Source of the DNA: Bolinopsis microptera
Taxonomy: Eukaryota; Ctenophora; Tentaculata; Lobata; Bolinopsidae
DNA: 64,000 nucleotides
Reading direction: 5' to 3'
Assembly (NCBI RefSeq): GCF_026151205.1
Contig: NC_087078.1
Location: 19,394,265-19,458,264 of the forward strand
The translations under genes were made by a program, and so were the position numbers. Below are positions 1 to 64,000 of the stretch, piece by piece. The first letter of the stretch is position 1. Every line of letters starts with the position of its first letter. The notes below the pieces were generated by a model. It did no database searches, was not told where the DNA came from, and saw only the letters and a program-made list of their open reading frames with translations.

Positions 1-1110
1 TCCTCCTCTTCAGTCCTCCTCCTCCTCCTTCTCAGTCCTCCTCCTCCTCCTCCTCCTCTTCCATCTCAGTCATCCTCCTCAGCCATCCTCCTCAGTCCTC
101 CTCAGTCCTCCTCCTCCGTCCTCCTCCTCCTCCTGGGTCCTCCTCCTCCTTTTCATCCTCCTCCTCTTCCTCCTCGGTCCTCAGTCCTCCTCCTCCTGGG
201 TCCTCCTCCTCATCCTTCTCATCAGTCCTCCTCCTCCCCAGTCCTCTCCCAGTCCCCCTCCTTCTCCTCCTCCTATTCAGTCCTCCTCCTCCTCCTCCTC
301 AGTTCTCCTCAGTCCTCCTTCTCATTTCTCCTAAGTCCTCCTCCTGAGTCCTCCTCCTCTTCCTTCTGAGTCCTCCTCCTGAGTCCTCCTCCTCCTCCCT
401 CTCAGTCATCCTCCTCAGTCATCCTCCTCAGCCATCCTCCTCAGTACTCCTCAGTCCTCCTCCTTCTCAGTCATCGTCAGTCCTCCTCCTCAGTCCTTCT
501 CCTCCTCCTGGGTCCTCCTCCTCCTCCTCCTCTTGGGTCCTCCTGGGTCTTCCTGATCCTCCCCAGTCCTCTTCCTCCTCCCCTCCTCAGTCCTCCTCCT
601 ACTCTTCCTCCTCGTCCTCAGTCCTCCTCATCAATCCTCAACAGTTCTCCTCCTTCCCAGTCCTCCTCCTCCTCCTGGGGCCTTTTCCTGGGTCCTCCTC
701 CTGGGTCCTCCTCCTCCTGGGTCCTCCTCCTCCTGGGTCCTCCTTCTCCTCCTCAGTCCTTCTCCTCCTCCTCCTCAGTCCTCTTCCTCCTCTTCCTCCT
801 CCCTCTCAGTCATCCTCCTCAGCCATCCTCCTCAGCCATTCTCCTCAGTCCTCCTCCTTCTCAGTCCTCCTCCTGAGTCCTCCTCCTGAGTCATCATCCT
901 CAGTTCTCCTCCTCCTCCTCCTAGGTCCTCCTTCTGGGTCCTCCTCCTCCTCCTCCTCCTGGGTCTTCCTGATCCTTCTCCTCCCTCTCAGTCATCCTCC
1001 TCAGTCATCCTCCTCAGTCATCCTCCTCAGCCATCCTCCTCAGCCATCCTTCTCAGCCATCCTCCTCAGTACTCTTCAGTACTCTTCAGTACTCTTCAGT
1101 ACTCTTCAGT
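1..1110. repeat. CT-rich low-complexity tract (TCC/CTCAG repeats)
   Basis: About 1.1 kb is made almost only of TCC triplets punctuated by CTCAGTCC, TCATCC and TGGGTCC variants. It lies upstream of the first visible exon of the SH3D19-like gene, so it is probably intronic. On the + strand many units have the form polypyrimidine tract followed by CAG, which is the shape of a 3' splice site. No coding sequence is seen. Confidence 0.9.
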
Positions 1111-1120
1111 CCTCAAAATG

Positions 1121-1275
1121 TTTGTCCGCTAATGTCCACCAATGTCCGCTAATGTCCACCAATGTCCATCCAAGTCCGCCAATGTCCGTCCGGGTCCGCC
1201 AATGTCCGTCCGAGTCCGCCAATGTCCGTCCGAGTCCGCCAATGTCCGTCCGTGTCCGCCAATGTCCCAAAAAAC
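1121..1275. repeat. 20-bp minisatellite
   Basis: A unit close to AATGTCCGTCCGAGTCCGCC is repeated about seven times, with shorter degenerate units on both sides. It sits in the intron before the first visible SH3D19 exon. Open frames across it are a by-product of the repeat. Confidence 0.85.
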
Positions 1276-1519
1276 ACGTCCGTTGTCTCATAGAATCCAA
1301 AAAGGACAGGACATAGGCGGACATAGACGGACATGACACCCCCCCTAAATAATTGATAGATATTCTCAAAAGCTGAAAACGTTTTTGTTGTGGTTTATTC
1401 CTATCTTTAAATAATTATTTACAAGAGATTAATTCCTAAATTCCACTGAATTTCGTATGTTGTTTTAGTCAAAGTTCTGTTTAGCTATTTATATTTTCAC
1501 GGTTTATTTATTTTCCCAG

Positions 1520-4500
1520 AGCGGTGGACCTACGTTTTATGCTGGAGACAAGAACAAAGCAGTTATTTCGTTGTTGGACTTAGACTTCAATGCCCCTGCA
1601 GTCGTAAGTTCAGGGGCACCACCCCCACAGCCACTACTCATACTGCCTACTGCTGATATTATGAGTAAGGGGGCGCCACCCTCTCGTCCTCCTCCTCCTA
1701 AATCAGGTTTTTATTTTTTAACACTTCTTTCTTTAGTAGCATCTTTTATTGTTTATACCTGCTCTATGCTCTCAATGTTCTGTGGTTTCTTTAGGTGCAA
1801 AAATAACAAGAATTTCGCCGCGGTAACACCACGCACGATTAAATTTCCCTACTGCCTACAATGTAATTGTTCTACTTTAGTGTATCCCAGAGTGGTGTTT
1901 GGCGCACGTGATAATCATTAATCGTTTATATTATATTAAGCATGCAGAACTTGAAAAATCCTGCGCGCATCTGAGGTGTCGCCGTCGATCTGTATGTGGT
2001 TTGGTTGTAGATCATTTCAGTTTTGCGCGGTTTTGTTTCGTGTTAACGATGCGTATCATGTCACGTCATATTATTGCATCATTTGCCAACTTTATTGACT
2101 AATAAAATATTCTGTATCATCTTAGTTATTATTTGTATCTAAGTCTAACATAAACTAATACATTTTGATGCTTATTCGACACATCTACAGCACCATCGAC
2201 TATCGAGCCTTTGATTTGACATAGGATTCTTTAAAAACATAGTATCGCAATCTTGATCTTAGTTGCTTCTTGGATGTAAATGTAAAGTAACATCTGTTCT
2301 CAACTATGCATTCGCTTTTTACCATTCAGTGTCGATCAACTGTTAAATAATCAGCCACGAGTTTATCAGCTGATATCATAATTTCTTTTATACACATAAT
2401 TATAGGGGAGTGGTCTATATTGCGAAGGGGCAGACTTTTGTCATCACCGTAGGACCGTCGGGCCACCTCATATATCCAAACCCGATTACATATTCCCTAC
2501 GATCTTTTTGCCTGCGGCAAGAGTAGGGAAAAACTGAAAAAGATTCAAAACGCCTGGCCAGTCTATCTAAATAGTAAATCTACCAGATGGTAAAAGGGCT
2601 TCACTTTCCAAAACACAATTGATTACAAATTCTACTTCCTCAATTTTCGCTTATCTACAGGCGATGATGTAGTTGCACTGCAGCCCACTTTTGATGGACT
2701 AGCACCACCATTACCACCAAGACCTGGTCCTGGACACATACTTTACCATCACGTACTGAAAGCTGGCCCTTATTGTGTTGCCCTGTTTGAGTTTGAGGCT
2801 GAGAGCAGTGACGAACTAAACTTCAAGGTTAGCCGGTTATTACATTTGATCTTACACTCTTACTGTTTGATTTAATCCTGTCTTTTTACTGCGACCTGGA
2901 TTGATTCCTTTTGTGCACTCCTAAGACAAACAGTCGTGGATTTTTCAGGCAGGCGATGGCATAAAATTGGACAGTGACCTCTCTGATGAATGGTTCGCTG
3001 GTAGTATCGGTAACAGACGTGGCATTTTCCCGAAGAATTGTGTCGAAGTGAAAATTCCTCTGCCTGCGCGGTGAGTAGAATTTGATTTGATATCACTGTA
3101 AATAAATTTGGTAACATCTGTGGATGTGCAGAGATTACAGTCGGAAAATCACGTCCAATCATTGCTATAAACCGATATTATGTGATTACATTAGCGGCAA
3201 ACGCGATCGCCTTTTTAATTTGTTCTGATTAAAGCCGCGCTTTCAGACCAATTATAACGCGCACTCATCTAGAAGCCAGTGCGCGCTACTCGTATTTTAT
3301 CCACCCACACAAATAAAATTTGTTACCCGTCCACTTCCTTATATTATTACGAAATGTGTCATTTGCCCGTAATGATCTAACACAATACGTAAATTAACAC
3401 GCCCGATGGTTGAAAAAATCCTACACAATGTCTCTTGACACTGTTAACGATAACCAATATATATCGTTGCCGCTGAATCACATGATATATTCTCAGATCA
3501 GATACACCTGCCGCCATCCCCTCCCCAGCTAGGACCCTTTCCCCAGCCTCCTCTCCGTCTCCAATACCAGATGCTATAGACACTGCTGCTGATGCAGGTC
3601 CTAAAGAAGACTCGGCTCCTAAAAAAGATCTGTTCAACGCTTGGGGTGATTCTCGCACACCATCCCCACCTCCTATACCATCTGAACCTGGTAAATCCCC
3701 ACCTCATATACCATCTGAACCTGGTAAATCCCCACCTCCTATACATCTAAACCTGGTAAATCCCCACCTCCTATACCATCTGAACCTGGTAAATCCCCAC
3801 CTCATATACCATCTGAACCTGGTAAATCCCCACCTCCTATACCATCTGAACCTGGTAAATCCCCACCTCATATACCATCTGAACCTGGTAAATCCCCACC
3901 TCATATACCATCTGAACCTGGTAAATCCCCACCTCATATACCATCTGAACCTGGTAAATCCCCACCTCATATACCATCTGAACCTGGTAAATCCCCACCT
4001 CATATACCATCTGAACCTGGTAAATCCCCACCTCATATACCATCTGAACCTGGTAAATCCCCACCTCATATACCATCTGAACCTGGTAAATTCCCACCTC
4101 ATATACCATCTGAACCTGGTAAATCCCCACCTCATATCACATCTGAACCTGGTAAATCCCCACCTCCTATACCATCTGAACCTGGTAAATCCCCACCTCC
4201 TATACCATCTGAACCTGGTAAATCCCCACCTCATATACCATCTAAACCTGGTAAATCCCCACCTCATACCATCTGAACCTGGTAAATCCCCACCTCCTTT
4301 ACCATCTGAACCTGGTAAATCCCCACCTCATATACTGAAATGACTTGCTCTTACCTTTGTAATAAGAGTGAGCTAAAGCTCCATGCTAAGATAAGTAACA
4401 TCGTTAGTAACAATCATAACACTCCTCATATCTCAGATTCCACGTTATCTTCCAATGTATGTTACTAGACGTCTTTCCAAATGATACTTATTTGAATCGT

Positions 4501-7500: not shown

Positions 7501-10500
7501 GAAGTTTGAACTCCCCAAGATCACTGACATCATCCTTTGGAACGAATATCCCGCACCTTTCAAACCAAACGGGGTTCTTCCTGCAAACTCATAATGCCCC
7601 CATGGTACTACAAATGCCGTTGTCTCCGAATCTTCCTTTCGTAGTGGTAACTGGTGGTATCCCGACTTTGCATCAAGGACTGCAAAGTACTTAGCCTTCC
7701 CCAGCCTGTCCAAAAGATCGTCAATGAGCGGTATTGGATGTAAAGTCGCTGTATTTGACTTCTCATTGGTTATCCGATAATCAATCGCCATCCTCAGGCT
7801 CCCGTCTTTCTTGCGTGCACACACTATGGGTGATGCCCATTGGCTGTTAGATTCCCTGACTACTCCTTGTTTGAGTAGCTCATCGACGTGTTCCCGGACT
7901 TCATCGGCTAACTCTTTTGACAACCTCCTCGGCTTGCTCACTACTGGTGAGCTGTCCTCTTTCAGCCTTATGGTGTGTTCCACACCCACTCTAACAATAG
8001 GCAGCTCTCCTCCCTTATAGAACACACCTTCATATCTGTTTAGAAGTCCTATTAATTGACCCCTCTTGCTCGGCTCCAGCTCACTGCACACCAACTCGCT
8101 CAATTCCGTTGCTTTGCCTTTCTTTGTATCCCTGGTGAACGCTTTACCCGCATTGTGGTTTGATACCCATACGGTCCCGAGTTCAACTGTAGCAATGGGA
8201 TCCCCTTCTGCCAGGGTCACTTCTTCCTCTCCTAGATTTGCTACCCTGATCTGTACCTTACCGCTCTTTGTTCCCTGAACAATCCCGTAAGGTGTGCTTA
8301 CTAGCTTATCGTCAAACGTTATTGGTTGAACCATATATTCCTTACCCATCTCCATGTTGGGGATGTAACATGTCACTAACGCCTCACTCCTGGTAGGGAT
8401 CTTACGTTCGGCATCCACTACCACTTCAACTGAGTTCTCCTCCTCAATGGTCCCTGCGACGCTGCTCCTGCCTGCGGCTGGGTGGCATAGCAACTCTATC
8501 TCTTCACTGTTACCATTGATAGTCATCACACTCTTGTTGAAGTCAAATGATATGTTGGCTATCCTAGACCAGAAATCTATCCCCAATATCATCGAGCAGA
8601 TCATCTTCTCAACCACAATGAATCGCTGGTGGGCAAAAGTCAGTCCACCCACAGAGACAGTTCTTCGTATCTCTCCCGTGACAGGTATTCTTTCGCCGGA
8701 TACTCCTCTCCCACATAACGCCGATTTCTCCATTGTGGCCTTCTCCTGTTCTGTAAGTAAGTCCTCACATATTAATGACCACTGGGCCCCTGTATCGAAC
8801 AGTGCAGTTTCCTCAACTCCATTCTCCCACTTAATCCTAATATATGGTGTCGAGTTCAGACCCTCTGAAGCGATCCCCTTCATCTGTTGTAACTGCTTCC
8901 GCCGTCCTTTACCACCCTTCTCAGGAGTAATGACCCGAAACTGGGCTCTGGCACATGCCCAAGGTTTCACGTCATGCTCCTCCCCTTCTCTGCTGCTAGG
9001 TTGCTCTCCAGTATTCTCCCCGCCCCCATCACTCTGCCCGTCTATAGGGGGCTCTACCGAAAATCCGTACCCCTTCCTCTTCCAGCCTTGTCACCTCTTC
9101 TTGCCGGTCTCCACGTAGGGTCCTCCTTCTTTCGCACTGCGCAGTGAAACCATCCCCCTCGGTGTTTCTTTTTACAGTAGAAGCATTCAAGGAATTCTAG
9201 TGGTAGCCCGTCTGATGATTCACCACTTCCTCTCGAACTGCTGCTCCTGTTTGACCGGCCTGACTCGCCGGACGATTGCTTCCTCCTGTCTCCAGCATGT
9301 GACGATGACTTTTGCTCCCACGCGCTAACCGAATATTCTTGTGCTGCGTTGATGCTGCCGGTCTCCTTACCCATGGCTTTTACTGCGTCGTCCGTCTTCT
9401 TTGCTATATCCGCTACCTTCAGGAGGTCCTCCAGGGGTTTCGCCTCTTGCCGTGATTTCATCCAGCCACCCTCTAGCAGCTTCCGCTTGATCCTCTCGTC
9501 CCCCAATCCACTAACAAACTTCCATGCTACCCTTCTGTCGAGGTCTAATTGGCTATCTCCGTCGTATGCCTCTTTCACCGTCATTTGCAGTCGGGTCATG
9601 TAGTCGCTGATTGTCTCCCTGGGCTCCTGGATACTCTTCTCAAACCCAAGAATGTTCAGTTCGATTGCCTGTACATTCGTGAATTTATCCTTCAACTTAC
9701 TTACAAGTAATTCGTCGTTACTTGTCCACGGATTCAGCATGGAGCTCGCAAAACTCACGTAATCAAATGCTTCCCCTTGCAGACAAAGCGTCAGCTTCCC
9801 AGCCCTGTAGGATGGGGAGTCCCACCCTCTCAGTCGTGCCCGCATGTTCAGCTCTTTGACCACTTTATATCTCTCGATGAACCTTCTCATTGAAACTGCA
9901 GAGTAGTCCCCGTCGTGTCCGAAAGATAGGTCTATCCTCTCTTCCTTTCCCATCGCGTCGTACGGCGTCCCCAGTACTTCTTCCTCTACTGGCTCCTGTT
10001 TCACCTTGGTGCTTCCTTGGGCCATTTCTCCGCCATAACTGCCCGTCAGCATTGTACAGGCTAGTACTGTTTCTGCGCAACTCTTCTGAAAGTACTCCGC
10101 CTCGACATTGTCATTCGCCAAGTCCTCTTGGGCCAATGTCATCCGCTGGAGCAACTCTACTGCTTCCTTGTTCATTTCCTCCCACTTCGCTTTATTCTCC
10201 TGGATCCGCTCCTGAACATTGCCAGCATTCTTCTTGATCTCCCGGTTCTCTACTTCCAGGGCTGCGATCTTTTCCGACATTTCCTTGTTGTTCTTCATCA
10301 ACAAAGCCAAGCTGGCCTGGACCTCTTTCATCTGTTCATCCATAGCGTCGTTCGTATTCACTTCAGTCACCAATGAAATGACTTGCTCTTACCTTTGTAA
10401 TAAGAGTGAGCTAAAGCTCCATGCTAAGATAAGTAACATCGTTAGTAACAATCATAACAATACCATCTGAACCTGGTAAATCCCCACCTCATATACCATC

Positions 10501-13500
10501 TGAACCTGGTAAATCCCCACCTATACCATCTGAACCTGGTAAATCCCCACCTCCTATACCATCTGAACCTAGTAAATTCCTCGTTGAACAGTTTTGAGGT
10601 GACAGGTTTCTGAATTATCGTTCGGAATTGATCAACTATCCAATTAAATAAGTTAATCAGATTACTGTTACTTTTATTAAATTGTATAAATAATTATTAA
10701 TCATAATAGTACACCGCTACAAGAGATTGAAACACTATAACTCTATAACCTGCAGAACCGACCAGTACTCCCACCCCAGAACCTTCTCCAGCACCAGTTC
10801 CAGCACCAGTTCCAGAGCCTACACCTCCAGAGCTAACTCCTATTGGCACCTGCATTGCTATCTACTCCTTCGAGGCTCAGGAATCTGACGAGCTTTCTAT
10901 CATCGAGGGGGGCACTGTCGAAGTTGTAGGTAAGTCTCATACTTTAGGTACAATTAACAACTGTGTTACGTATCACATACTAGCAGTGTCATCAAAGATG
11001 AAAATCCACAATATTAATCTTGAGCCTATTTGAAGATTATTTAGTTTCATCCCCAGAGTTTGTAGACGATGATTGGATCAAGGGAAGAGTTGGTGACCAA
11101 GTTGGTATTTTCCCCCGATCATATGCCTCGTTTGGAGACGAAGAAGTAGAAGAAGAAGCGTTGGAAGAGATATTGGAGGAAGATACACATTCAATGGGCG
11201 TTTTCTATGACTTTGAAGCAGGAGCTGACGATGAGTTGAGTTTGACGGCGGGTGATATGGTTAAAGTTATTAGTACTGTTGGAGTGGAGTGGATTAAAGG
11301 TAGGTTTTGGTAAAATATCAGCTTTTTTAAACATATCAGCTGTGTTTGGGTTGCTGTTGGTCTGTTTGTTTGTTTGTTTGTTTGTTTGTTTGTTTATAGA
11401 ACCCGTCCCAATCTCGTATCGGAAACTGACGAAACTCAATTTTTAGTGTGAATACCGGTGGTACCTGCAAGAGTGTTCATTAAGCATTTGGAGTTCTGTA
11501 AAACCGCATTTACAATCGTGCTAGAGTATTTTTATTATTTACAATCGATATCAGATCGGTATCCTTGCATGCTTCCAAAATTGTCAATCTCCAACTTTCT
11601 GCACAATGTACTGGAATGGTTTAAAAGAGGAAAAGAAAAAAAGTATATACATATAGATAAAAAACAATATTAAAAAATAAAAAAATAAAATTCGGGGAAA
11701 CATAGTATGTAACGTCGATACCAAACCAATTATTGAGCGATGGTGACTGAGTTGTTGATTCCTGGGTTGCAGAGTCCTCCTGTTTCCTCATTCTTTGAAT
11801 TAGTTTGTGTTCTTCTTCAGTTCTGTCCATATGTTATGATCAAAGTTTTGGAGTGTCATGTTGTCCTCAAATTATTTGGTCTAGAAATAGCGAACTATTT
11901 TTGGCGGACAATTTATCTTCTAATAGATATTCCAAGTTTCACTGTCATAGTCAGTGCTCATAAGTCAGTAGTGGATTACAAAGTGAATATTTAATGTTTG
12001 TTAACTGTTTTTTCGCCAGGGAGATTTGGAGGCAAAGAAGGAATATTTCCCGCTTGTTTTGTTCCAGCTATTCCTGACCACTGGAATATTCCCGAAGACT
12101 CTGAAACTTTCACTGAAAACTTTGGTGAGCCAAACTACACCTTAAGTTTGTTCTCAGAGTTTAAAAACACGAATGACGAAAATTATATCCATTTTAGATT
12201 ATTTGCTTGTGTTTCACTGTCATGAAGATGTAACTAGGTGAGACCGACCTAATACTTATAGGTGTGACCAGTGCAGGGGTGGGGGGGGGGGTATACTTAC
12301 CTGTAGTTTGCAAGTAGAGCCGCGCACTGGTAACGACTATTAGCTCGGTCTCACCTAGTCACATCTTCGTGACAGTAACAATTTCATCTCAGAGACTACC
12401 GAGGAGAGTAGTAGCAGTAGCAGTAGCAGTAGCAGTGACGATCACAAGGACACAATGTCAGAGATAAGCGATTCAAGAAGTTACTCTGCAGAACCCAGCT
12501 CTGATTTGGGCAGAGTCGAGGTAATACTTATAATTTCTTTTTACAGAGCGTGAGCGGTAACTAAGTAACTTTCAAACATTTTCAGCTTTACCAGCGAACA
12601 AAACCAAAACGGAGATTTTACAATAATCGATCATGAAACATTCTGGTTTTTAGATATAATATACTGGTTTTTAGATATAATTGTAGTTACTATTCGCAGA
12701 TTATAGCTGACTTTAAAGCAGAGAATGATTTCGAAATGAGTGTAAACACGGGAGACATAGTGAAAATAACAGCGCGACTAAACGACCTGTGGTTAGAGGG
12801 GGAGTGCCACGGTAATAACGGTATTCTACCAGTTAACTTTGTGAAGTGGCTCGATACTACACCTGAGCCTGATATTATCGGAAATCCAGGTTAGTAACAA
12901 ATATTCTACTGATATTATGAACAAAGAAAATTTTTTCTATTTTTTCATTTCCATCAGAATTAGAAAGTGTTCATCTTTGGCTGAAAGTTGAATGAGTTAA
13001 ATGATTACTGGAAGGTTGGATACAATTTAACATTTGTTTTATTGTATTTGTATACCTTACAAGACATATTTATGGCGGCCTAATTTGCGACGACCGAAAT
13101 TTTGGCGGTCCGAAAATATGGCGAAATTGAACAAAAACCGTCAAATTTCGGACGTCACAGAAAATAAGGGTATTTTTCATCATTTTTTGTGACAGTAAGC
13201 AGTAAGGAAATTTCTGAAATTCGGTAAAATCTTGTAGGTTTACAACCTACCAGGACGAGTTGGACTCGTCGACGGTCCAATATATGGAACAGATATTTTA
13301 CGAGTATCACCCGTTAAGTAAAATCATGTTCAAACTTAGTCTGTATTAAGACTGTAAGACTTTCATGTTAGCACATACATGTATTTTAATGCAAATTTAA
13401 ACTGTATTGCTTGACATTCAATTCGTCATTGGTGTGGTGATAATTTGTCCCAAGATGCCAGAATTTATTTATTTATTTTGCTTGATATTACTTTTTAGAA

Positions 13501-25545: not shown

Positions 25546-25554
25546 CTTCGAGAT

Positions 25555-29235: not shown

Positions 29236-31713
29236 AGCTAGGAAAGGTGTATCGACCAGCTAGATGCTGAAGTAAGAAGTAAAATTGACATTAAAGCTCA
29301 TCAATTATAACTAGTCAAGTTTCAACGAATTAATACGTTGAAGTAAAATAACAGACTAAAAGTTAAAGTTTGGCACTTGACAATACACGTTACTTACCCT
29401 AACATATAATACAACTAAACAGCGGAAATGCACTTAAAGCACAGAAAATAGTAAATGTACAGCGAGATCCGCCGATCAGTCTCTTATATACAACTTTACA
29501 GAGGTATCATGTCCAGTAGAGCTGTAAATTACCGTGTCGAATTATTGCTAATTGAGTTACTTGGAGCTTGCACTCTAGGCAGTCTGTGTGGCTAGTAATT
29601 GGAAACTTTATCTTACGTAATAAATTAGTTACTAGAATTAAGGCTTAGCAAGTGAATCTCGTCTGGTTATTCTAGCGAAGAGAGGAACGCAAAGGAAAAG
29701 ACAAAATGTAGTGAAGCTTAAAAACCGAGAAACTAAATCTGACATTTTAAAAATACCAAAGTTTTTAAGTTCTCGTTTTAAACCAGAAGAGGGTTTATTG
29801 TTTGATGTAAAAACAAGAAGAATAAAAGGATCCCTTACATAGTGACCACTTAACCCACTGCTCGACAGCACTGAACCGTATAGTAGCTTTACACAATAGC
29901 TCGTAAAGGTCGATATATAGCAATATATAGCAATTTAAAGGTAGATATACAATTTAAAAGGTAGATATACAGAAATATACTATAGCAATATAAAGATAGT
30001 TATAATATAGCAATAACCTTCAAGAAAGAGAATCAGCAGCTCTAATTATACAGTGTAACTGAGCACGGGCCAGGGTTTACAATATTAACTTAATCATAAG
30101 CGGGTACATTAAACTGAATATATTTTATGCTAAACTGAAGAATATTATGCTAAAGTTTATAGAATAATGCTTAATATAATTATATGATCTATTGATTTAT
30201 AATAACGTTTGCAAGGTACCTACAGGTACCCAGACTGTGGCTACAGTCTAACTTGAATAATTGTTTATGAGCCGCATAGAATATGTTTAATGTTAATCAT
30301 TCAATCTATATATATATTATATATATATATAACACTATAGACAACATTATTCTTTCAATTAAGTCATCATATTATCATATTTTTTGCAATATTCAAGCTG
30401 CTAAAAGAAATTATTCACATTCAACATCCCTACATACATTCCTAATAGTCAATCATTTGTTATGATAAACGTAAGTTTTTGGAGTGTGGAAATATTGAAA
30501 ACTGATATTAAAGTCTCTTTCAGACATGCGGTTGATCTATGACATGTGGTTGATCTATGAGATGTGGTTGATCGCCTCGTAAGAAAAGTTCACGAACATT
30601 CCGGACTAACTCAACTTGTAGCGGATAGAAAAATTGCCAGGATTAAATTGGCCTCCGAAATAAGATGTTGCCGCCACCATTCTACCAGGGAATATATTGC
30701 AGGCTACAATAAAATCAATTGTGAAATATGAGAGGGAGACGAAATGTATTATTATACTGTAACCCCCCTAGCCTGTCCCACTGTTATTATACTAGATAAT
30801 CTGCGCCCTTTTCCACTGAGCTGTCTTTTCAACTCTCCAGGGATTTGATAACAATAAAAATATGTCCTTTAACCATAGTGACCGTGTGTGTCCTGAATCT
30901 CCCCGCGCCGACTGACATCTACCTTATTTCATTTCCGGATATTGTCCAACTATCAATATCACAGTTGTGAAACTTCTCCTACTTTGCCTTAACGACTGTG
31001 TTTTATTTGTATTGTAAAGCTTTATTAACAGAAGTTTGAACACTCTGCACAACAAGTCTACAATTTACAGTTTAGATTTTAACTTATTGCTAGATACGCA
31101 TACGGCATAAGTGAAAACACCAGTTTTTATTATAGGTTGAAAAGTTGAACAAAACCAAAGACAAAATTACCCTCGACACAAGAAAAAACTCAAAAGTTAA
31201 CAACAGTGATTGCCGCGAAAAATTAAAAACGATTACAAACCATGATACACTGTTTGATACAATTTGTTATAATATCATGTAGTAATAAGTAATATAAAGT
31301 CAAAACTGTCATAACGTCATATAATTACAAATTCTAATAGTACGAATTTCATCCCTTGATAAGGTTAGGATCGTTCACACTTTTACCAAAAACATGTTTT
31401 CAATTTCTAACACCATAACATGGACAATCATAGTAATTAACCCAAAAATCAAGCAAAATCTCAAATACCAAATAGTTTGCTTTCTGAACTTAATTTAAAT
31501 CAAATCACGCCATATTTATTTAATATCAAATAATTCCAGTTTCGTTGAGAAACTTCGGAGAAAAATTGTGGACTGTAAAATATCGCACCAACACTTGGCG
31601 ACTTGGCATAATAACGCAACAAAATTCAGTTATTTAAACCGCACAATTCGAGTCTTGAAAAACACTGTAAAATGCGCCTGATAACACCACAAAATGAGGT
31701 TCATCAAACAACC
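29236..31713. other. Intergenic, no recognised gene
   Basis: AT-rich sequence. A 21-bp motif with GTGGTTGATCTATGA repeats three times near 30525-30575. One unexplained stop-free stretch (29641-29843, + strand) ends in TAG but has no Met and no clear splice signals. Confidence 0.5.
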
Positions 31714-44200: not shown

Positions 44201-47200
44201 GGCAACATAAATGTTGTACATCAGTTCATTAATCTATATCTCGAAACTATAGATGTTTAAACGAGAAAGGAAGGTGACTGTAAATACCTAGCTCATTAAC
44301 GAACATAATCTTGACATGGTGCGTGAGAACGTCATCAGGTATTGACTTCATGTGTTGAAAACCGTCCTCAAACAGCCGTCTCCGGTGTATTTTAATTAGG
44401 ATTGTTTTACATTCCATTCCTCGTCGGTCTTCAGAGCGTTTCAGTGCTTTTTCCTGCGGTTCATTGAGCTTTAACAGCGAAATAAATGTTATTTAAGCAA
44501 AATCTGAGTTAATACTTGTATTAAACTCAGTGCTAATACTTAAATTCCTAGATTGTCGCATATTATTTCAGTTTAACACAAATTTCGAAACAGAAAAGAC
44601 TTGTAATGTCACCTGTTTGATAAGCCCCTGTAAGTACTCTAGTTTTTTCTTGTTCGGTAAAACCCAAGGTATAAAGTCTGTAATCTTGTGAGCGCGACCT
44701 TTTCCTGAAAATAAAATTCAGTAAACAAACTCAATAGTACAGTACTTGGAGATCTATTTATACAGCATCTATTTCTTACAGCAAGTATGCGAAAATAAAT
44801 CAGTCTAGGTGTTTAGTTTAAGCAACACCAGGCGAAGCACTTAGTCAACTATTTTTTGTTGTTGATATAGAGCAGCTTGCCACTTAGGTCCATGATAATT
44901 ATAAAACATAACGCCGGACTTCTAGGCAGTGTGCTTGGTTGTGGGACACACTCAACTAGGAAAGGTTGAGAAACCTGAAAACTCCCTGAAGAACTTGATT
45001 AACTATACTCATTAATGAGAATAACCTGCTTTGAGTTCAGCAATGATGGCAGCAGGAGATGCGTCCTTGGGGGTCCAGAATTTGGTGGCGGTGTAGCGCT
45101 TACGCTCATCTCGTTCGTGTAGGAGTATCAACAAACCATGGCAGGTGGATACGCGCTCTAAAACTGCGGGACAACAGTTGATCAGTGTGTTCGTACACAA
45201 CATACTCACTTATGAATTATGATCATTGAACATGAGTGTGAATAATTATGAGGTCGCTTGATTCAACGATGATCGAAAGAAATTATAATCTGTAGATTTT
45301 CAAGATTCTATCAATCGAGACATATGTTACGATTTTACTCAAAAGAACATACCAGTAGCATTCTTGAGTTCATCATAGTGGTTCCAGATGATGTTAAACA
45401 ACATACTGTTCACGAAATCCCCAATAGTACCGAGCTGCTTGAGAGAGAACGGTTGCTCCTGTTCGTAGATCTCGCTATCTGATAAGACCACAAAATATTG
45501 CCCGAAACAGGAACAAAACAGCAGCAACAGCGGCACAAAGGGGTCGGTGGTTTGTTCGGTGGCCATGTTCCTGGCTAGCGTCCTGCTAGACTGGGAGTGT
45601 TCCGTGTAGACCAGCTTCCAGAGGGAGGAGAGGAAGTCAGGGAAACAGCAGAGTGACATTAGGATGTCTGTTTTGTAGAGATGGAATGTTTTGATGACGA
45701 CGTTGTAGAGGGAGCAGACCGCGCTAACGTGGAGGAGTAGCCGGGATTCGCACTTGCCGGAGAAGAGCTGCTTCCAGGAGACCGCCCTGGTGGTGCCGAG
45801 CAACTTACTGCTCGTAGAGAACTCTGCTTCTAGCAAATCCTGCAAGTTATTTAGATTAGAGCACCTTACTGCTCGTAGAGAACTCTGCTTCTAGCAAATC
45901 CTGCAAGTTATTTAGATTAGAGCAACTTACTGCTCGTAGAGAACTCTGCTTCTAGCAAATCCTGCAAGTTATTTAGATTAGAGCAACTTACTGCTCGTAG
46001 AGAACTCTGCTTCTAGCAAATCCTGCAAGTTATTTAGATTAGAGCAACTTACTGCTCGTAGAGAACTCTGCTTCTAGCAAATCCTGCAAGTTATTTAGAT
46101 TAGAGCAACTTACTGCTCGTAGAGAACTCTGCTTCTAGCAAATCCTGCAAGTTATTTAGATTAGAGCAACTTACTGCTCGTAGAGAACTCTGCTTCTAGC
46201 AAATCCTGCAAGTTATTTAGATTAGAGCAACTTACTGCTCGTAGAGAACTCTGCTTCTAGCAAATCCTGCAAGTTATTTAGATTAGAGCAACTTACTGCT
46301 CGTAGAGAACTCTGCTTCTAGCAAATCCTGCAAGTTATTTAGATTAGAGCAACTTACTGCTCGTAGAGAACTCTGCTTCTAGCAAATCCTGCAAGTTATT
46401 TAGATTAGAGCAACTTACTGCTCGTAGAGAACTCTGCTTCTAGCAATTCCTGTCTAGTTATTTAGATTAGAGGCAACTTACTGCTCGTAGAGAACATTGC
46501 TTTCTAGCAAATCCTGCAAGTTATCTAGATTAGAGCAACTTACTGCTCGTAGAGAACGCTGCTTCTAGCAAAATCCCTGCAAGGTATTTAGATTAGAGCA
46601 ACTTACTGCTCGTAGAGAACTCTGCTTCTAGCAAATCCCTGCAAGTTTTTTAGATAGAGCAACTTACTGCTCGTAGTAGAAACTCTGCTTCTAGCTAATC
46701 CAGCAAGTTATTTAGAATTTAGACAAGCTTACTTGCTCGTAGAGGAACTCTCTGCTTCTAGCAAATCCGGCAAGTTATGTAGATTAGAGCAACTTACTGC
46801 TCGGAAGAGATCTCTGGCTTCTAGCAAAACTCTGGGGACTGGTTCTAGCAAATCCTGCAAGTATTTAGATTAGGAGCACCTACTGCCTCGTAGAGAACTC
46901 TGCTTCTAGCAAATCCTGCAAGTTATTTAGATTAGAGCCAACTTTCCTGCTCGTAGAGAACTCTGCATCCTAGCAAATCCTGCAAGTTATTTAGATTAGA
47001 GCAACTTACTGCTCGTAGAGAACTCTGCTTCTAGCAAATCCTGCAAGTTATTTAGATTAGAGCAACTTACTGCTCGTAGAGAACTCTGCTTCTAGCAAAT
47101 CCTGCAAGTTATTTAGATTAGAGCAACTTACTGCTCGTAGTAGAGAACTCTGCTTCTAGCAATCCTGCAAGTTATTTAGATTAGAGCAACTTACTGCTCG

Positions 47201-50200
47201 TAGAGAACTCTGCTTCTAGCAAATCCTGCAAGTTATTTAGATTAGAGCAACTTACTGCTCGTAGAGAACTCTGCTTCTAGCAAATCCTGCAAGTTATTTA
47301 GATTAGAGCAACTTACTGCTCGTAGAGAACTCTGCTTCTAGCAAATCCTGCAAGTTATTTAGATTAGAGCAACTTACTGCTCGTAGAGAACTCTGCTTCT
47401 AGCAAATCCTGCAAGTTATTTAGATTAGAGCAACTTACTGCTCGTAGAGAACTCTGCTTCTAGCAAATCCTGCAAGTTATTTAGATTAGAGCAACTTACT
47501 GCTCGTAGAGAACTCTGCTTCTAGCAAATCCTGCAAGTTATTTAGATTCTTTTACCTTCTTGATTATAGTGCAAAGTGCTAAATCCTATTAACAGATTTT
47601 TAACCATGATGATGCATACGCGGTTAGAGAAATATTAAAATGACAGTTTCCAATCTAGCACTCCTCATAAAGATGATATATATACCTGGAAAAAGAACTT
47701 CTTGAAGAGCTGTGAGTGAAGCAGTCTGATTTGAATGGTAAGGAGCTGGAGTGAGTTGGTTAGTTGAGGTGACACGGCTGTGTCACACATTCCTAACAAA
47801 GGGTGCCAGTGCGCAGCTTTAGGGGACACCATCTTTCCAGCGTCCCGTAACAGCGTGAACAAAGTCCTTATTATTGTGGGATACTTTATCACCATTCCTC
47901 CTTTGAGTGCCTATTGGGAGTAGTATATAACTGTTGGGTTGTACCTTTCAAATTCACGCATTCCATTACGTTGTCAGAGCGCCTGATTAAATTTGAAATA
48001 GTATCTTATATTCGATAGAATGTCATTGGTGCCAATCATACTTATGATTAGCACCAATGACCAATCTTTTAAGAGAAAAAGACCTCAGTAAACTGTATCC
48101 TATACAAAAACACTGAAACACAATTATTAGCAGAAATAAACTTGACACATTATTCCTATATGGATTTCAGGTGGGTCAAATAATGGTGGATTTGATTTTC
48201 AGTCCTATCACTTTAAATTCAACAGAATATTTTGAAAAAATTAATAAAAATAATAAATGATAAACAATATTTCTCTCTATTTATGGGATAAATTTAAACT
48301 TCACAATTACAAAGATCGTGATACATACAAATTAGTTTTAGTTCACATAATTTTAATATCTGAAAACTACCGTGAGCACTTATACTCCAGTAGCAGGGAG
48401 GGGTTGAGTGAGCACTAAGATCTACATATACACGTGGTTCAATAAATTAGCTCTCAGTTCAACTAGTGCTCTCACTAACAGTACGAGAGAAACGTTGTGT
48501 CTCAGTACGTGCTCTCACCAACAGGGGGGGGGGGGGTCATGAGTATTTTTGAGTATTTTTGAATCTGAGAATTTGACCATTTTCGCCGGGAATACTCAAA
48601 AATGCCTCAAAAATTATTTTTGAATCTGAGAAATTCAGCATGGATTTCTCATTTTCTCAAAATCGTCCACTCAAAAATCATTTTTGAATCTGAGAAATCA
48701 GTAAAAATTGTCCATTCAAAAATAGTGATATACCAAATCATTCTTCATATCAGTGCAATGTGGTCCAAAATACTCAAAATCAATTTTTGAGAATGAGTTT
48801 TCGCCTCTCCTGGAAAATGTTCTCAAAAATAATTTTTTCCATTCACACCCTTTTGTAAAAAGACAATAGTGAAAGGTTACGAATGGTCGTTTTTGCAGAA
48901 AAAGAGGGATTTTGGAGAACGAGGTACCTAGGTGGGTTTAAATATGTCGTCAGTCCTTACTTCCTTGCTTACTTCCGTCCGTTACCATGACAACAAAATG
49001 CGCGCAGTGCGCAAGGGTTGCTTGCGGAGATGTGATGTATAGCCTGCAGTCAGTGTATGCGCAGCCGAATCATCTCCCGGCGCGGCCCGGGAGATGATTC
49101 GGCTGCATTACAATTTCTGCGTATAAACTTGTCTCCACAAGAAGGATATTGGTCAACATCACCCTTACCTGATAAAGGAGATGCACTGAGTTGAGGATAT
49201 TGGTAAACATGACCCTTACCTGATAAAGGAGATGCACTGAGTTGAGGATATTGGTAAACATGACCCTTACCTGATAAAGGAGATGCACTGAGTTGAGGAG
49301 GATATTGGTAAACATGACCCTTACCTGATAAAGGAGATGCACTGAGTTGAGGATATTGGTAAACATGACCCTTACCTGATAAAGGAGATGCACTGAGTTG
49401 AGGATATTGGTAAACATGACCCTTACCTGATAAAGGAGATGCACTGAGTTGAGGATATTGGTAAACATGACCCTTACCTGATAAAGGAGATGCACGGAGT
49501 TGAGGAGGATATTGGTAAACATGACCCTTACCTGATAAAGGAGATGCACTGAGTTGAGGAGGATATTGGTAAACATGACCCTTACCTGATAAAGGAGATG
49601 CACTGAGTTGAGGAGGATATTGGTAAACATGACCCTTACCTGATAAAGGAGATGCACTGAGTTGAGGATATTGGTAAACATGACCCTTACCTGATAAAGG
49701 AGATGCACTGAGTTGAGGAGGATATTGGTAAACATGACCCTTACCTGATAAAGGAGATGCACTGAGTTGAGGAGGATATTGGTAAACATGACCCTTACCT
49801 GATAAAGGAGATGCACTGAGTTGAGGAGGATATTGGTAAACATGACCTTTACCTGATAAAGGAGATGCACTGAGTTGAGGAGGATATTGGTAAACATGAC
49901 CCTTACCTGATAAAGGAGATGCACTGAGTTGAAGATATTGGTAAACATGACCCTTACCTGATAAAGGAGATGCACTGAGTTGAGGATATTGGTAAACATG
50001 ACCCTTACCTGATAAAGGAGATGCACTGAGTTGAGGAGGAGAATTGGTAAACATGACCCTTACCTGATAAAGGAGATGCACGGAGTTGAGGAGGATATTG
50101 GTAAACATGACCCTTACCTGATAAAGGAGATGCACTGAGTTGAGGAGGATATTGGTAAACATGACCCTTACCTGATAAAGGAGATGCACTGAGTTGAGGA

Positions 50201-53200
50201 GGATATTGGTAAACATGACCCTTACCTGATAAAGGAGATGCACTGAGTTGAGGATATTGGTAAACATGACCCTTACCTGATAAAGGAGATGCACTGAGTT
50301 GAGGAGGATATTGGTAAACATGACCCTTACCTGATAAAGGAGATGCACTGAGTTGAGGATATTGGTAAACATGACCCTTACCTGATAAAGGAGATGCACT
50401 GAGTTGAGGAGGATATTGGTAAACATGACCCTTACCTGATAAAGGAGATGCACTGAGTTGAGGAGGATATTGGTAAACATGACCCTTACCTGATAAAGGA
50501 GATGCACTGAGTTGAGGATATTGGTAAACATGACCCTTACCTGATAAAGGAGATGCACTGAGTTGAGGAGGATATTGGTAAACATGACCCTTACCTGATA
50601 AAGGAGATGCACTGAGTTGAGGATATTGGTAAACATGACCTTTACCTGATAAAGGAGATGCACTGAGTTGAGGAGGATATTGGTAAACATGACCTTTACC
50701 TGATAAAGGAGATGCACTGAGTTGAGGACGATATTGGTAAACATGACCCTTACCTGATAAAGGAGATGCACTGAGTTGAGGAGGATATTGGTAAACATGA
50801 CCCTTACCTGATAAAGGAGATGCACTGAGTTGAGGAGGATATTGGTAAACATGACCCTTACCTGATAAAGGAGATGCACTGAGTTGAGGACGATATTGGT
50901 AAACATGACCCTTACCTGATAAAGGAGATGCACTGAGTTGAGGATATTGGTAAACATGACCCTTACCTGATAAAGGAGATGCACTGAGTTGAGGAGGATA
51001 TTGGTAAACATGACCCTTACCTGATAAAGGAGATGCACTGAGTTGAGGAGGATATTGGTAAACATGACCCTTACCTGATAAAGGAGATGCACTGAGTTGA
51101 GGACGATATTGGTAAACATGACCCTTACCTGATAAAGGAGATGCACTGAGTTGAGGATATTGGTAAACATGACCCTTACCTGATAAAGGAGATGCACTGA
51201 GTTGAGGAGGAGAAATAGAATCTGCTCTTTAGAGCAGGTGTCTATGATCTTATCAGTGTTGGCTGTTAAACTCATCAGTGCAGTGAGAGTGTACTCGGTT
51301 AGTTGGGTCATGTGACCTGGCTTTAACCGGCTGAAATATTGTTCATTTGTTCATGTTATGTTGTTAGAGGGGTTAAATCTATACTCTGTTAAGGTCCAAT
51401 AGTTCGAAGGGGGAGGGAAACAACTAAATACCCTAAAATAATCAAGGTTCTGTTGTAAATTGTATGCTAAATTAGGGGATAAGTTATTAAGTTAATTAAT
51501 AAAGTTATTTTGTTATTATTTATTAAGTTATTTAGTTAACTTAATAAGTTATTTAGATAATGTCATCTGTCAGTTATTTGACAGAGATCCAGCAGGAAAC
51601 AAATAACTGTCGCTCACAAACCTTATCAAAGACGGGGTGGAGAAAACACTGAGCCACATTGCCAGCCAAATGGACTCGTCGAAGTTAGACTTCTGGAAAA
51701 CAAGCATGACGAGGTCTGACAACAGGCACATCAGGGAGGTGGGGAGCACAGGCTCTGAGCGGGACACGTTCTTCAGTAGGAGGTGTTGTAGCGCGTTCAG
51801 GATACCACCTAGCAAGCAGTATATCACACTTTAATACTAACAATTATTTACTACATTGTATTTGTACGTGTATTGGGGTAGTTCAATTTTGCCCGTATCC
51901 ATATAATTTTCTCAATCTAATTTGTAGAATGGATAGCACGGTCCTGTGTCTTCCTCATATCTTATACTTTACTGTCCCGGTCGATTAGAGAATGATAAGT
52001 CATTTCTGTGGAGGGGGGGGGGGGGGGTTAGGGTTAGGGTTTAATATACTTTAATATATCCCTATATTTTTGGAGGCCTAAATCAAAAATTGTTGCCCAC
52101 AATAAGCTTGAAATGCAATTTTTAATCGATTCCGAAAATTTCATGCAAAAATATTGAAAACTGATAGAGTTATTTTGACTAGTATCCCGAACCGAGATAT
52201 TATATGTGCAATTTTGACATCGAGGTCATTTTACTTAACTTATCCACTATTCAACAGAATATATCTTTTACATAAAGTTAGTCTCATTCAAAAATATTGA
52301 AACTTGATCGAATTTTGGGCAAAAGCTTTCAAATTTGGTGCGTATGCCCAAATATGGGCATATGGGTTGAAGCTCATAACTCAGCTATTTTTTTTACCAA
52401 ACTGGATGTAAATTTGTACTAGTCCAAAAACAGGGTTATATTGCATATCTAAACGAAGAATATAGCTCGACTAATTTTGGGTATATTAAAGTATATTAAA
52501 GTATAGGTTTTTCCCGATTTAGGGCCGGGGATATACTTTAATATACTTTAATACACTTCAATATGGTCAGCCCCCCCGCCCCCATTTCTATTTGAGATAA
52601 TGGCTGATTTAATCGCCCATCACAAGATTATGAGTACAAATTACATAACATCTGTAACATCTGTAATAATATAATGTAAGCTAAGTACTTCAGCATCAAA
52701 TTTAGGTGTACCAACAAAAAAACATTTCATTCGAATCATTTTCAATTTTGTTAACAATATTTCTATTATTTATATATTATATTATATTATTTATATATTT
52801 ACATATAATATAATTATATTATATATTATATATAAATTACATATATATTGTTAGTCAGCCACAACTGTCAGTAAAACAACGCATTGACTTCAAATGTCTG
52901 TATAATATACCTTTACAGTCATCCTCAAATTATTTGTTATAATATAGTGCTTTCAGCAATACTCATAGTAGTGTTGAAAGTATTAAAAAATATATATATT
53001 ATATATTAATCTTAGTTAAACTTAAATCAGCACTTTTTATTGTCTCCTATGACATTAATCCGGACTAAATAAATATTGCACATTTCTCCTTTAGTAATAG
53101 CCCGAAGAAGAAGATGCCAGACACTGAGACAGCAGGAGTAGAGCAGGGTGTCACCAGACTCCCCCGCCCCTGGTACTGTCCGAAACACCACCCTCTCCTC

Positions 53201-54695: not shown

Positions 54696-54884
54696 GATCA
54701 AAACTCTGAATTCGACCCCAGAAAAGATTTGATAATATGTGCCTCAAATAATTTTGTTGTGATGCGAGTTTCTCAAGTGCTCCAGCTACTGTCAAGAGCT
54801 CCAACAAAGGCCTTGTAGTGAACTGGAGACGTTCACCGAAAATCTACATCGTATTCTTAACAGCAGTCTTTTCTGTCAAATGAG

Positions 54885-55578: not shown

Positions 55579-61420
<5,842 letters not shown>

Positions 61421-62325
61421 GTTTACACCTATAGATGGGAACATCAAGATTTGTGGAAATTAGTATCTGATTAAATTTCGGTTTAAATGGTAAAATAACG
61501 GATAAATGATGAAGTTTAATCTTTTGATAGCAAAAAGCGCTTGCGAGGTCAGTCTTGAAGAGTTAATCACTTTCGGTCGGTGATCTGTGTATTTTTAGTA
61601 AGAAACAACCATGATATACCTACATACTTCAAGTGACCGTAGTTAAGATAAAAATGACACGAAAGGAAATTTAAATAAGTTTCGTTCTGAATTAAATACA
61701 TGCCACCACAGAAGTTTAGAAACTAAAATAATAAGGATTTACAATTCGTTTAACAGCTCAACTGGAAACAATAAAATGTAAGTCAATGCTAATATCTGAA
61801 AGCTAATGCACATTTTTTCTTAATTACTGTAAATTGTTAAATCGTTTAGATTAAAATAACTTATTATTTTACAACATTGTAAGCTACCAATTTACAAGCA
61901 ATAAAACTTTCAAAATTCAAAAAAGTTTTTGTCATGACTAAGCTAAATTTGAAAATCTAGCAATGTGAACCCATGTTAAAATTAACATTATACCTTTACA
62001 ATTTGCGAATCTACTGAATCTTTGATGGCAAAAATAAAAAATTATCCTGTCTAACAGACGTCTGCCAAAAATCATAAATTAAGATCAACAAAATATTTTT
62101 TAAATTGTAGGTTTATACATGCTGCATGCAACATTCTCAAGCAATAAAATCAAAAGCAAAAAAAAACAAAAGAGAAAAAAATCAATATATCCTAGCTTAA
62201 AACTTACTTAAAATTTCTCACCCCATTCCATAAATTTCATCAATCATGCACTCATTACTCAACCTATATTATCAAGGGATCCATTTTTACCACAATCGAC
62301 AAAAATGTTAAACTCCAAACATTCT
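61421..62325. other. SDHA promoter/5' region and ZFPL1 3' flank
   Basis: ZFPL1 and SDHA are in tandem on the - strand. No defined promoter motif seen. The 900 bp are AT-rich and without repeats longer than a few bases. Confidence 0.5.
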
Positions 62326-63497
62326 CTATTTAGGATTTATCTGGACCTTGTTATCGTGTCCCAGATGTACGAACGGATCATTAGTAGCATGGTCATTAGT
62401 TACACGTGTCAACATCAGAATGCACGTTAGAAGGACAATTACACCGATAATAAATAAGATAATCCAGCGCCGCAAGTTTGCAGATAAGGGATCATCTCTA
62501 TCTTTGCTTATTGAGTGCAATCTGAAATGAGTCATAACGTTAAAGCTGTAGAATATTTCCCTTGTAGATGTTTTCTATCTTTACAATAATCTGGGTCATA
62601 TTGACAACTTCAAATCACAGAGGGATTTTATTTTACAAATAGTGATTATGTTTTCTATCGTTTCTACACTCTACAGTGGTCACGTGATTTAAACAAGAGG
62701 ATGGCGTGTTTAAGGGGGCCGGGGTCTTTAACTGAACCCCCGGCCCCATTTACCTAAACCCCCCGGCCCCATTAACCTAAACCCCCGGCCCCATTAACCT
62801 GAACCCCCCGGCCCCATTAACCTGAACCCCTCGGCCCCATTAACCTAAACCCCCCGGCCCCATTAACCTGAACCCCCCGGCCCCATTAACCTTAACCCCC
62901 CTTTTTAAGAAAGGGGAAAAGGTCGATTGCTGCCAACTATCGACCGGTATCTCTAACATCCATCCTCATAAAGATGTTCGAGACCAGCACGGCTTTCAAG
63001 CTGTCTTACTCAACTTCTTCACCACGTCCAAGACATCATGGATCTTCATACCGTCCCCGACACCCCTCCTACCCCTGGATATACAGGGGCTAATGGCAAT
63101 TCAATCTTGGAATGGGCTGTGAGCAAGACATGATAACGGAGACACCAGTGGTGGAGACACAATATGTCTTGGCCTGGGCGTGCTAGCCCGAAACGAACCC
63201 AAGGTAGGTAGGCCCCATTTACCTGAACCCCACCCCGGCCCCATTAACCTGAACCCCCTGGCCCCATTAACCTGAACCCCCGGCCCCCTTTACCTGAACC
63301 ACCCAGCCGCCTTTACCTGAACCCCCGGCCCCTTTACCTGACCCCCCCTCGGCCCCTTTACCTGAACCAACGAGTTAGCCACTCTCTCAAACTCCTCCGC
63401 CTGTATTTGTCTTCATCGCAATCAAACGCAGACACGCTAGGTCTCGTGGGCTCTGCGTCGCGCGTGTCTACCACCATGTTCTTACGATCGTAGGACC
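62326..63497 (-). CDS. ZFPL1: ZFPL1, last two exons (5' part outside window)
   Basis: Family role: integral membrane RING/B-box-like zinc-finger protein of the cis-Golgi that binds GM130. Penultimate exon 63497-63362: SYDRKNMVVDTRDAEPTR then FDCDEDKYRRRSLREWLTRW, matching the human VYDTRDDD and CDDDKYRRRPALGWLARL block. Last exon 62521-62326: RLHSISKDRDDPLSANLRR, the single helix WIILFIIGVIVLLTCILML, and a lumenal tail DPFVHLGHDNKVQINPK before TAG, in the place of the human DPNLDPLMNPHIRV end. The join is phase 2 (TTC AG|A) and consistent. The zinc-binding N-terminal half should lie beyond 64000. The intron between them carries a donor-derived array and a LINE fragment. Confidence 0.9.
62735..63362 (-). 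repeat. ~20-bp array starting at the ZFPL1 penultimate donor (split by an insert)
   Basis: On the - strand, units read TTCAG|GTAAAGGGGCCGG or TTCAG|GTTAATGGGGCCGG; the first is the true exon end and donor. Units occupy 63205-63362 and 62735-62900, separated by unrelated sequence 62905-63205. Confidence 0.9.
62908..63100 (+). mobile_element. Non-LTR retrotransposon (LINE) reverse-transcriptase fragment
   Basis: The + strand reads KRSIAANYRPVSLTSILIKM followed by FE, the classic NYRPVSLTS motif at the start of LINE-type RT domains (Jockey/CR1/RTE-like). The frame decays after about 60 codons. It lies inside the ZFPL1 intronic array. Confidence 0.75.
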
Positions 63498-63639
63498 CTG
63501 AATAAAATTGTAGTCATACCAGTGAATAATACCAGCGTCCTTATTTCAATATACAAAAATAAGTTTTACACTTCCCATTCTAGAGGGTTTATAATTACGT
63601 TGAGATCGTGAAACGTAATCCAGTGAATTATATACTACC

Positions 63640-64000
63640 AACAGGTATCTTGCTATCCTAAACACTGACCAGAAACAGGAGTAACAACCCCAACAGGTAT
63701 CTTGCTATCCTAAACACTGACCAGAAACAGGAGTAACAACCCCAACAGGTATCTTGCTATCCTAAACACTGACCAGAAACAGGAGTAACAACCCCAACAG
63801 GTATCTTGCTATCCTAAACACTGACCAGAAACAGGAGTAACAACCCCAACAGGTATCTTGCTATCCTAAACACTGACCAGAAACAGGAGTAACAACCCCA
63901 ACAGGTATCTTGCTATCCTAAACACTGACCAAAAAAAGGAGTAACAACCCCAACAGGTATCTTGCTATCCTAAACACTGACCAGAAACAGGAGTAACAAC
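63640..64000. repeat. 52-bp array running off the window end
   Basis: About seven near-identical units contain CAACAGGTATCTTGCTATCC and GACCAGAAACAGGAGTAACA. On the - strand each has TTTCTG|GTCAGTGTTTAG, i.e. a donor-like then an acceptor-like site. It lies in the ZFPL1 intron before exon 63497. Confidence 0.92.

What the first reader, a model, noticed from the sequence alone, without database searches (positions are those of the whole stretch)
1..64000. Tandem arrays anchored at splice junctions across four or five unrelated genes
Seven arrays of different unit length (16, 20, 22, 30, 48/51, 61, 78 bp) start at or within a few bases of an exon/intron boundary in SH3D19, UBE3B (four), SDHA and ZFPL1. 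Six of them keep a donor- or acceptor-like sequence in most units. An eighth copies the end of the last LAMP exon. The units are unrelated in sequence, so this is not one mobile family. Known background: tandem duplication of AGGT-containing exon ends is a proposed route of intron gain. Inference: this genome may have a process (replication slippage at R-loops, repair linked to splicing, or selection for tolerated expansion) that amplifies junctions. Several other arrays (20.1, 28.2, 36.2 kb) are not at junctions, so it is an enrichment at most.
Basis: partly seen in the sequence, partly recalled or inferred. Interest (0 to 1): 0.88.

Follow-up and report, generated by a model that had tools for sequence, protein, structure and literature searches.

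The report
Tandem repeats spanning splice sites
In this animal genome, very probably a comb jelly, a number of unrelated genes carry minisatellites that copy an exon edge, with up to about 120 copies of the same splice site in a row; the arrays are real, but they sit at exon edges little more often than long repeat units in short introns should, so no special junction-copying process is needed.

Summary
Seven arrays in the window sit on or against splice junctions of SH3D19-, UBE3B-, SDHA- and ZFPL1-like genes. I add an eighth (ZFPL1, 52 bp) and confirm an array copying a coding end with its stop codon. Spliced peptides across two of the junctions align without a gap to solved homologues. Similar arrays lie at splice sites of unrelated genes elsewhere; one, at a NOG2 exon, has 119 exact donor words. 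Four genome-wide searches for tandem donor or acceptor heptamers gave 4 to 36 times more matches than the words read backwards. But a heptamer with its GT destroyed gave nearly as many (3338, nine times its own reverse, partly a dispersed family), so these counts do not prove junction targeting. Against a within-intron null the excess is weak: 13 of 26 hand-picked arrays (7.6 expected, P 0.012), 7 of 14 in the window (P 0.10), 2 of 8 in HECT genes (2.0 expected). Best reading: short tandem duplications arise widely in a minisatellite-rich genome with short introns; those crossing an exon edge survive because splicing can keep using the outer original copy. Single cases are known (human IFI6, potato RdRp).

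The parts
3662..4335 (+). SH3D19-like donor array, 33-bp unit, about 20 copies; exon end CCATCTGAACCTG|GTAAAT
   Evidence: reading frame breaks inside the array; GT in 19 of 19 aligned units
10460..10577 (+). remainder of the same 33-bp array beyond an inserted retroelement
31706..33100 (-). 64-bp array copying the coding end plus stop codon of the last exon of a LAMP-like gene, so the copies fall after the stop
   Evidence: gene name not confirmed
41503..42208 (-). UBE3B-like 22-bp array filling most of its last intron, beginning at the donor with a diverged first unit
   Evidence: the flanking exons match the UBE3C HECT end
43862..44096 (-). UBE3B-like acceptor array, 78 bp x 3, about 49 intronic + 29 exonic bases per unit
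   Evidence: spliced peptide aligns without gap to UBE3C 6k2c
45798..47548 (-). UBE3B-like acceptor array, 61 bp, about 28 copies, about 19 intronic + 42 exonic bases; exon part contains a cryptic GTAAGT
   Evidence: this exon has no Pfam hit, junction by reading only
49143..51211 (-). UBE3B-like donor array, 51/54 bp x 39, about 28 exonic + 23-26 intronic bases, CAG|GTAAGG
   Evidence: junction by reading only
59483..59805 (-). C-rich array 31 bp inside the donor of an SDHA intron (near, not on, the junction)
59974..60111 (-). SDHA 16-bp array ending 3 bp before the acceptor AG
   Evidence: spliced SDHA peptide across this intron matches 1yq3 without gap
62737..62901 (-). ZFPL1-like second 23-bp array in the same intron, interior
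63211..63368 (-). ZFPL1-like donor array, 23 bp, TTCAG|GTAAAG
63638..64000 (-). ZFPL1-like donor array, 52 bp, TTTCTG|GTCAGTG, continues beyond the window to about 65634
   Evidence: donor placed by reading frame only

Best explanation
These are ordinary minisatellites that happen to be seeded across exon edges. A short segment (about 15 to 80 bp) is duplicated in tandem and then expanded. If the segment crosses a donor, the first copy still joins the exon to a donor; if it crosses an acceptor, the last copy still precedes the exon; if it crosses a stop codon, the first copy still ends the protein. The original protein can still be made, so such arrays are tolerated at any unit length. Units are long relative to the short introns, so many intronic arrays touch a junction. 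Shown: anatomy, recurrence, frame-free unit lengths. Inferred: use of the outermost copy, neutrality, and the duplication mechanism.
For: Within-intron null: HECT genes, from a Pfam search run before any array was known there, 2 of 8 touching vs 1.99 expected; window 7 of 14 vs 4.4 (P 0.10). Junction-array periods divisible by three: 10 of 27, as for random lengths. All 11 arrays I call exonic are in frame, but this is partly circular because I recognised them by open frames. The junction can fall almost anywhere in the unit, from about a tenth to nearly nine tenths exonic by my reading. Splice cores are not conserved beyond the other positions of the unit (invariant in 8 of 11 arrays, 6.9 expected, P 0.33), and L022 has lost AG in 3 of 10 copies. 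A stop-codon array and in-frame coding arrays occur in the same window.
Against: In the pooled table 13 of 26 arrays touch a junction against 7.6 expected (P 0.012); outside the window 6 of 12 vs 3.2 (P 0.049), although the four random-segment rows are limited to introns whose exons I could recognise. Core identity is above the unit mean in 9 of 11 arrays. AGGTAAG beats its reversed control at every setting tried: triples 3430 vs 96 and 3771 vs 139, pairs 4183 vs 267, exact period 32 255 vs 0. One exon, in L023, has an array at each end.
Confidence: 0.63

Rival explanations
1. A junction-biased mutational process: something linked to transcription or splicing (R-loops, nascent-RNA-linked repair, cDNA recombination ending at exon edges) duplicates DNA at exon borders.
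For: Pooled excess 13 of 26 vs 7.6 expected, P 0.012; donor and acceptor heptamers in tandem exceed reversed controls; arrays at both ends of one exon in L023; NOG2 donor array with 119 AGGTAAG sites.
Against: The HECT set shows no excess. A GT-destroyed heptamer AGATAAG gives 3338 triples vs 369 for its reverse, so tandem counts are not splice-specific. Of 26 complex arrays outside the window, 0 carry a donor-like site scoring 5 or more, vs 0.8 in shuffles. A non-splice motif, TCACGTG, gives 14865 triples vs 2286.
Confidence: 0.17
2. Exonic DNA is the preferred seed of minisatellites here, and selection leaves only in-frame, junction-crossing and stop-crossing survivors.
For: Of 13 fetched loci selected by the control heptamer GAATGGA (of about 19 loci listed), I read 5 as exonic in frame and 2 as junction-crossing.
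Against: Exonic fraction of junction units is not skewed to high values by my reading; several arrays abut the junction with little or no exon (SDHA-16, THOC2, HECT L073). GAATGGA may itself be codon-biased.
Confidence: 0.1
3. The arrays are functional: repeated splice sites, or repeated branch-point and pyrimidine tracts, are selected to strengthen or diversify splicing.
For: HECT L073 array repeats TACTAATAACCCCTCTCCCCC up to the acceptor CAG; UBE3B-54 reads open through 766 codons; core identity above unit mean in 9 of 11 arrays.
Against: Core invariance is as expected from the other positions; UBE3B-54 is also open over long stretches of the other frames; unit lengths are frame-free.
Confidence: 0.05
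4. New introns born by tandem duplication of AGGT-containing exon segments.
For: UBE3B-61 repeats an acceptor plus an exonic cryptic GTAAGT, the arrangement of the potato RdRp case (PMC4974935, first of five parts of the text read).
Against: In UBE3B-54, UBE3B-61, UBE3B-78, ZFPL1-23 and SDHA-16 the array covers one end of an intron whose other end is unrelated sequence.
Confidence: 0.02

Closest known systems
IFI6 (6-16) minisatellite providing multiple splice donor sites, human (Turri et al. 1995; seen only as a citation and one sentence in passages of PMC4526556; other details recalled)
   Same: A tandem array whose units carry splice donors; two downstream units are used as alternative donors.
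   Different: One human gene; here several genes, both donors and acceptors, unrelated units.
Internal tandem repeats at exon-intron boundaries of human segmental-duplication genes (PMC2812944, passages including part of the abstract)
   Same: Minisatellites averaging 30-bp units, some at exon-intron boundaries; 27 intron modifications after manual inspection, some making new introns.
   Different: Restricted to recent paralogues; here conserved genes such as SDHA and NOG2.
[quoted passage not shown]
   Same: Duplication crossing an intron-exon boundary with a cryptic exonic donor, as in UBE3B-61.
   Different: One duplication making a new intron, not an expanded array at an old one.

Membership tests
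Junction-spanning minisatellite (IFI6 type) | tandem array whose unit contains, or whose last copy forms, a real exon-intron junction | tested here: met
   SDHA, UBE3B-78, NOG2 and THOC2 exon ends placed by alignment to solved homologues; units read; the SDHA and THOC2 arrays abut rather than cross
Junction-spanning minisatellite (IFI6 type) | inner copies used as splice sites in RNA | not testable with these tools
   no RNA data held
Intron gain by AGGT tandem duplication | intron absent from the ancestor and made of duplicated exon | not testable with these tools
   no other ctenophore genome held
Intron gain by AGGT tandem duplication | both intron ends lie in array units | tested here: not met
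   in UBE3B-54, UBE3B-61, UBE3B-78, ZFPL1-23 and SDHA-16 one intron end is non-array
Single mobile or satellite family (introner-like) | units related between loci | tested here: not met
   junction-array units differ between loci by reading; no all-against-all comparison was run; exceptions among donor-word arrays: C1:36545 and C1:761344 share a unit, C1:17401260 and C1:17417480 share a 9-bp unit

The most novel reading that the evidence does not exclude
Exon borders in this genome are mutational hot spots: a process tied to transcription or splicing duplicates DNA across donors and acceptors, so that thousands of introns carry arrays of tens to over a hundred copies of their own splice site.
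Probability: 0.15. Interest if true: 0.82.

Novelty: new member of a known kind. Interest (0 to 1): 0.42.

Why it matters
Even if neutral, these loci are natural experiments on splice-site choice. A conserved gene such as NOG2 carries about 120 tandem copies of one donor, with a 38-bp unit that is not a multiple of three, so correct expression presumably depends on choosing the right copy. Long-read RNA would show whether the exon-nearest donor always wins, and how often inner copies leak into mRNA. If junction-biased duplication were proved, it would supply raw material for intron gain and alternative splicing.

Tried and rejected
Genome-wide heptamer counts as proof of enrichment: rejected as decisive. 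AGGTAAG triples 3430 vs 96 looked overwhelming, but GT-less AGATAAG gave 3338 vs 369. In its listing a dispersed 33-bp family makes up 54 of the 100 rows shown, and pairs minus triples (753 vs 171 for AGGTAAG; 1294 vs 365 for AGATAAG) also mixes chance pairs with broken runs. Except, listings show only 100 rows, so locus totals are unknown.

Donor-score test on arrays chosen without regard to splice motifs: 3 of 48 at score 5 or more vs 1.7 shuffled; outside the window 0 of 26 vs 0.8. No support for donor enrichment. The weights of that score are recalled consensus values, not trained here. The filter dropped low-complexity and AT-rich arrays, among them L066 and L073-21, which I count elsewhere as junction arrays.

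Core conservation: I first took the splice cores as no better conserved than the unit; in fact has the core above the unit mean in 9 of 11 arrays, so I tested it by position: 8 of 11 invariant, 6.9 expected, P 0.33.

Rows not assigned: of 10 TTTCAGG loci fetched 5 read as acceptor-crossing, 1 donor-near on the other strand, 1 exonic, 3 unassigned. Of 15 further donor-word loci 4 read as junction-crossing (one, L033, at an acceptor), 3 intronic near a junction, 8 unassigned; of the first 5 3 clear, 1 plausible, 1 no. Calls are by eye and not blind. In the random segments I inspected 13 of 39 filtered arrays.

The table is hand-made: 14 rows from the 85 TRF rows of the window, 8 of the 27 rows of the HECT loci (the rest short or low-complexity, a few of them also beside exons), and 4 random-segment arrays, taken only from introns whose exons I recognised, which favours contact. 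Intron lengths were read by eye. The HECT family was chosen because the finding named UBE3B; the window's gene is not in the set, and HECT pieces without an intron were mostly not fetched. L014 was left out because it was found by motif. The exonic list rests on open frames, so its in-frame result is partly circular; for this I lowered the main confidence from 0.66 to 0.63.

Array polarity as a clock: UBE3B-61 has noisy single-base indels in its middle, which look like assembly error, so I did not use it.
Full report
Source. The window is G000:C7:19394265-19458264 of a 264.65-Mb genome; 13 large contigs of 15.2 to 26.2 Mb make up 97.5% of it. Passages in PMC10232365 and PMC11797021 give Bolinopsis microptera 265 Mb, 13 chromosomes and 97.23% in chromosomes, so the source is very probably that ctenophore or a close relative. 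This identification is an inference; the contig number differs (232 here, 346 in that table).

Observation. TRF lists 85 overlapping rows in the window. Reading the sequence confirms the seven arrays. UBE3B-54: exon ...CTCCTTTATCAG|gtaaggg, repeated 39 times with 28 exonic and 23 to 26 intronic bases per unit. UBE3B-61: 19 intronic and 42 exonic bases around TTGCAG|GATTTG. UBE3B-78: 49 intronic and 29 exonic bases, three copies. UBE3B-22 starts at the donor and leaves about 65 bp of a 771-bp intron outside the array. SDHA-16 ends 3 bp before the acceptor. ZFPL1-23 repeats TTCAG|GTAAAG. SH3D19-33 repeats CCTG|GTAA, and its reading frame breaks inside the array, so I read it as a donor array and not a coding repeat; a retroelement (reverse-transcriptase hit in one piece) sits inside it. 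I add ZFPL1-52 and the stop-codon array of the LAMP-like gene. Two junctions are anchored by gap-free homology: the spliced SDHA peptide across the 16-bp array aligns to 1yq3 and the UBE3B-like peptide across the 78-bp array aligns to UBE3C. The last two UBE3B-like exons match the UBE3C HECT end with unaligned sequence between them, so that junction is not tested to the base. The others rest on frame and consensus.

Recurrence. Arrays found by motif elsewhere lie at exon edges of unrelated genes: a Sushi exon (L014, weak Pfam hit), a NOG2 exon aligning to human NOG2 343-379 (L018, 119 AGGTAAG sites) and an exon I read as dynein heavy chain (L015, recalled; Pfam found nothing); a ubiquitin-conjugating enzyme (L022) and a cytidine-deaminase-type protein (L024) at acceptors; L023 with an array at each end of one exon; an ARPC5-like first exon (L048, weak hits). 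In all, of 30 loci fetched by donor or acceptor words, 13 read as junction-crossing (one of them only plausible), 11 as unassigned, 6 as near, exonic or not at a junction. Without motif selection: in 13 random 10-kb segments, of 39 arrays I inspected 13 and found one crossing a Sushi acceptor (L006), two abutting acceptors (L009; L011 in THOC2) and one 7 bp after a donor (L011). In HECT genes from my first search, L066 repeats its donor and L073 repeats a branch-point-like and pyrimidine unit up to the acceptor.

Is it enriched? Tandem triples genome-wide against the word read backwards: AGGTAAG gaps 10-40, 3430 vs 96; gaps 41-70, 3771 vs 139; AGGTATG, 2469 vs 408; TTTCAGG, 1363 vs 319; AGGTAAG at exact period 32, 255 vs 0. 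Singles differ little: 35462 vs 27883. But AGATAAG, without GT, gave 3338 vs 369, inflated by a dispersed family, and TCACGTG gave 14865 vs 2286. Heptamer counts therefore vary widely for reasons unrelated to splicing. A donor score on 48 arrays chosen without regard to splice motifs shows no significant excess. The fair null places each unit uniformly within its own intron: window 7 of 14 touching, 4.4 expected, P 0.10; HECT set 2 of 8, 1.99 expected; outside the window 6 of 12, 3.2 expected, P 0.049; all 13 of 26, 7.6 expected, P 0.012. The rows were picked by hand (see Tried and rejected); the HECT set is the least selected. The excess is at most about two-fold.

How it works. Junction-array periods ignore the reading frame: 10 of 27 are divisible by three. 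That is expected if junction copies are normally not translated: the first donor or last acceptor remains in place, and extra copies fall in the intron. Arrays I call exonic have periods divisible by three (11 of 11), but I recognised them by open frames, so that contrast is partly circular. Splice cores are slightly above their unit means in identity (9 of 11 arrays), not significantly by position (8 of 11 invariant, 6.9 expected), so the copies look passive. Which copy is used was not tested. My recollection of work on duplicated donors is mixed, and the three papers listed by one search did not look like a direct test.

Known or new. Single cases are known. The listings (titles and abstract starts) showed no report of such arrays in ctenophores; passages of PMC8527503 state that TRF marks 13% of the Hormiphora genome as repeats. 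I file this as new members of a known kind, notable for number and copy count.

Noticed in passing
window 59974-60111, 20095-20273; L011:2071-3263; L077:821-1034; C1:33216, 387672, 414996, 492441, 708735: CACGTG, mostly as TCACGTG, recurs in unrelated tandem arrays: 14865 TCACGTG triples vs 2286 for the word read backwards (the palindrome TCACGTGA is counted on both strands). In 194 kb, CACGTG occurs 106 times (44 isolated), GTGCAC 36 times (30 isolated). No explanation.
   Followed up: partly
window about 4336-10459: A retroelement (RVT_1 hit in one piece) inserted inside the SH3D19 33-bp array, with an identical terminal repeat of 86 bp at both ends and an ATAC-like target duplication.
   Followed up: partly
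window 24309-24557 (+): Small ORF with a signal-peptide-like start and repeats SAEPQQNGDLNLLNIGKR ending in KR, resembling a neuropeptide precursor; no Pfam hit.
   Followed up: partly
window 46440-46980: The middle of the 61-bp array is full of single-base indels while both ends are near perfect; looks like long-read assembly error.
   Followed up: no
window 53069-53803 (+): A long opposite-strand ORF inside a UBE3B-like intron, possibly a nested intronic gene.
   Followed up: no
C1:9762275-9765281, 12264157, 13734231, 14582034: Dispersed 33-bp tandem family AGATAAGTGTACTGTATTTTCCAATAATACTGG at several places on one chromosome.
   Followed up: no
L010:2783-3031: 21-bp array ending just upstream of a possible start codon with a signal-peptide-like ORF.
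   Followed up: no
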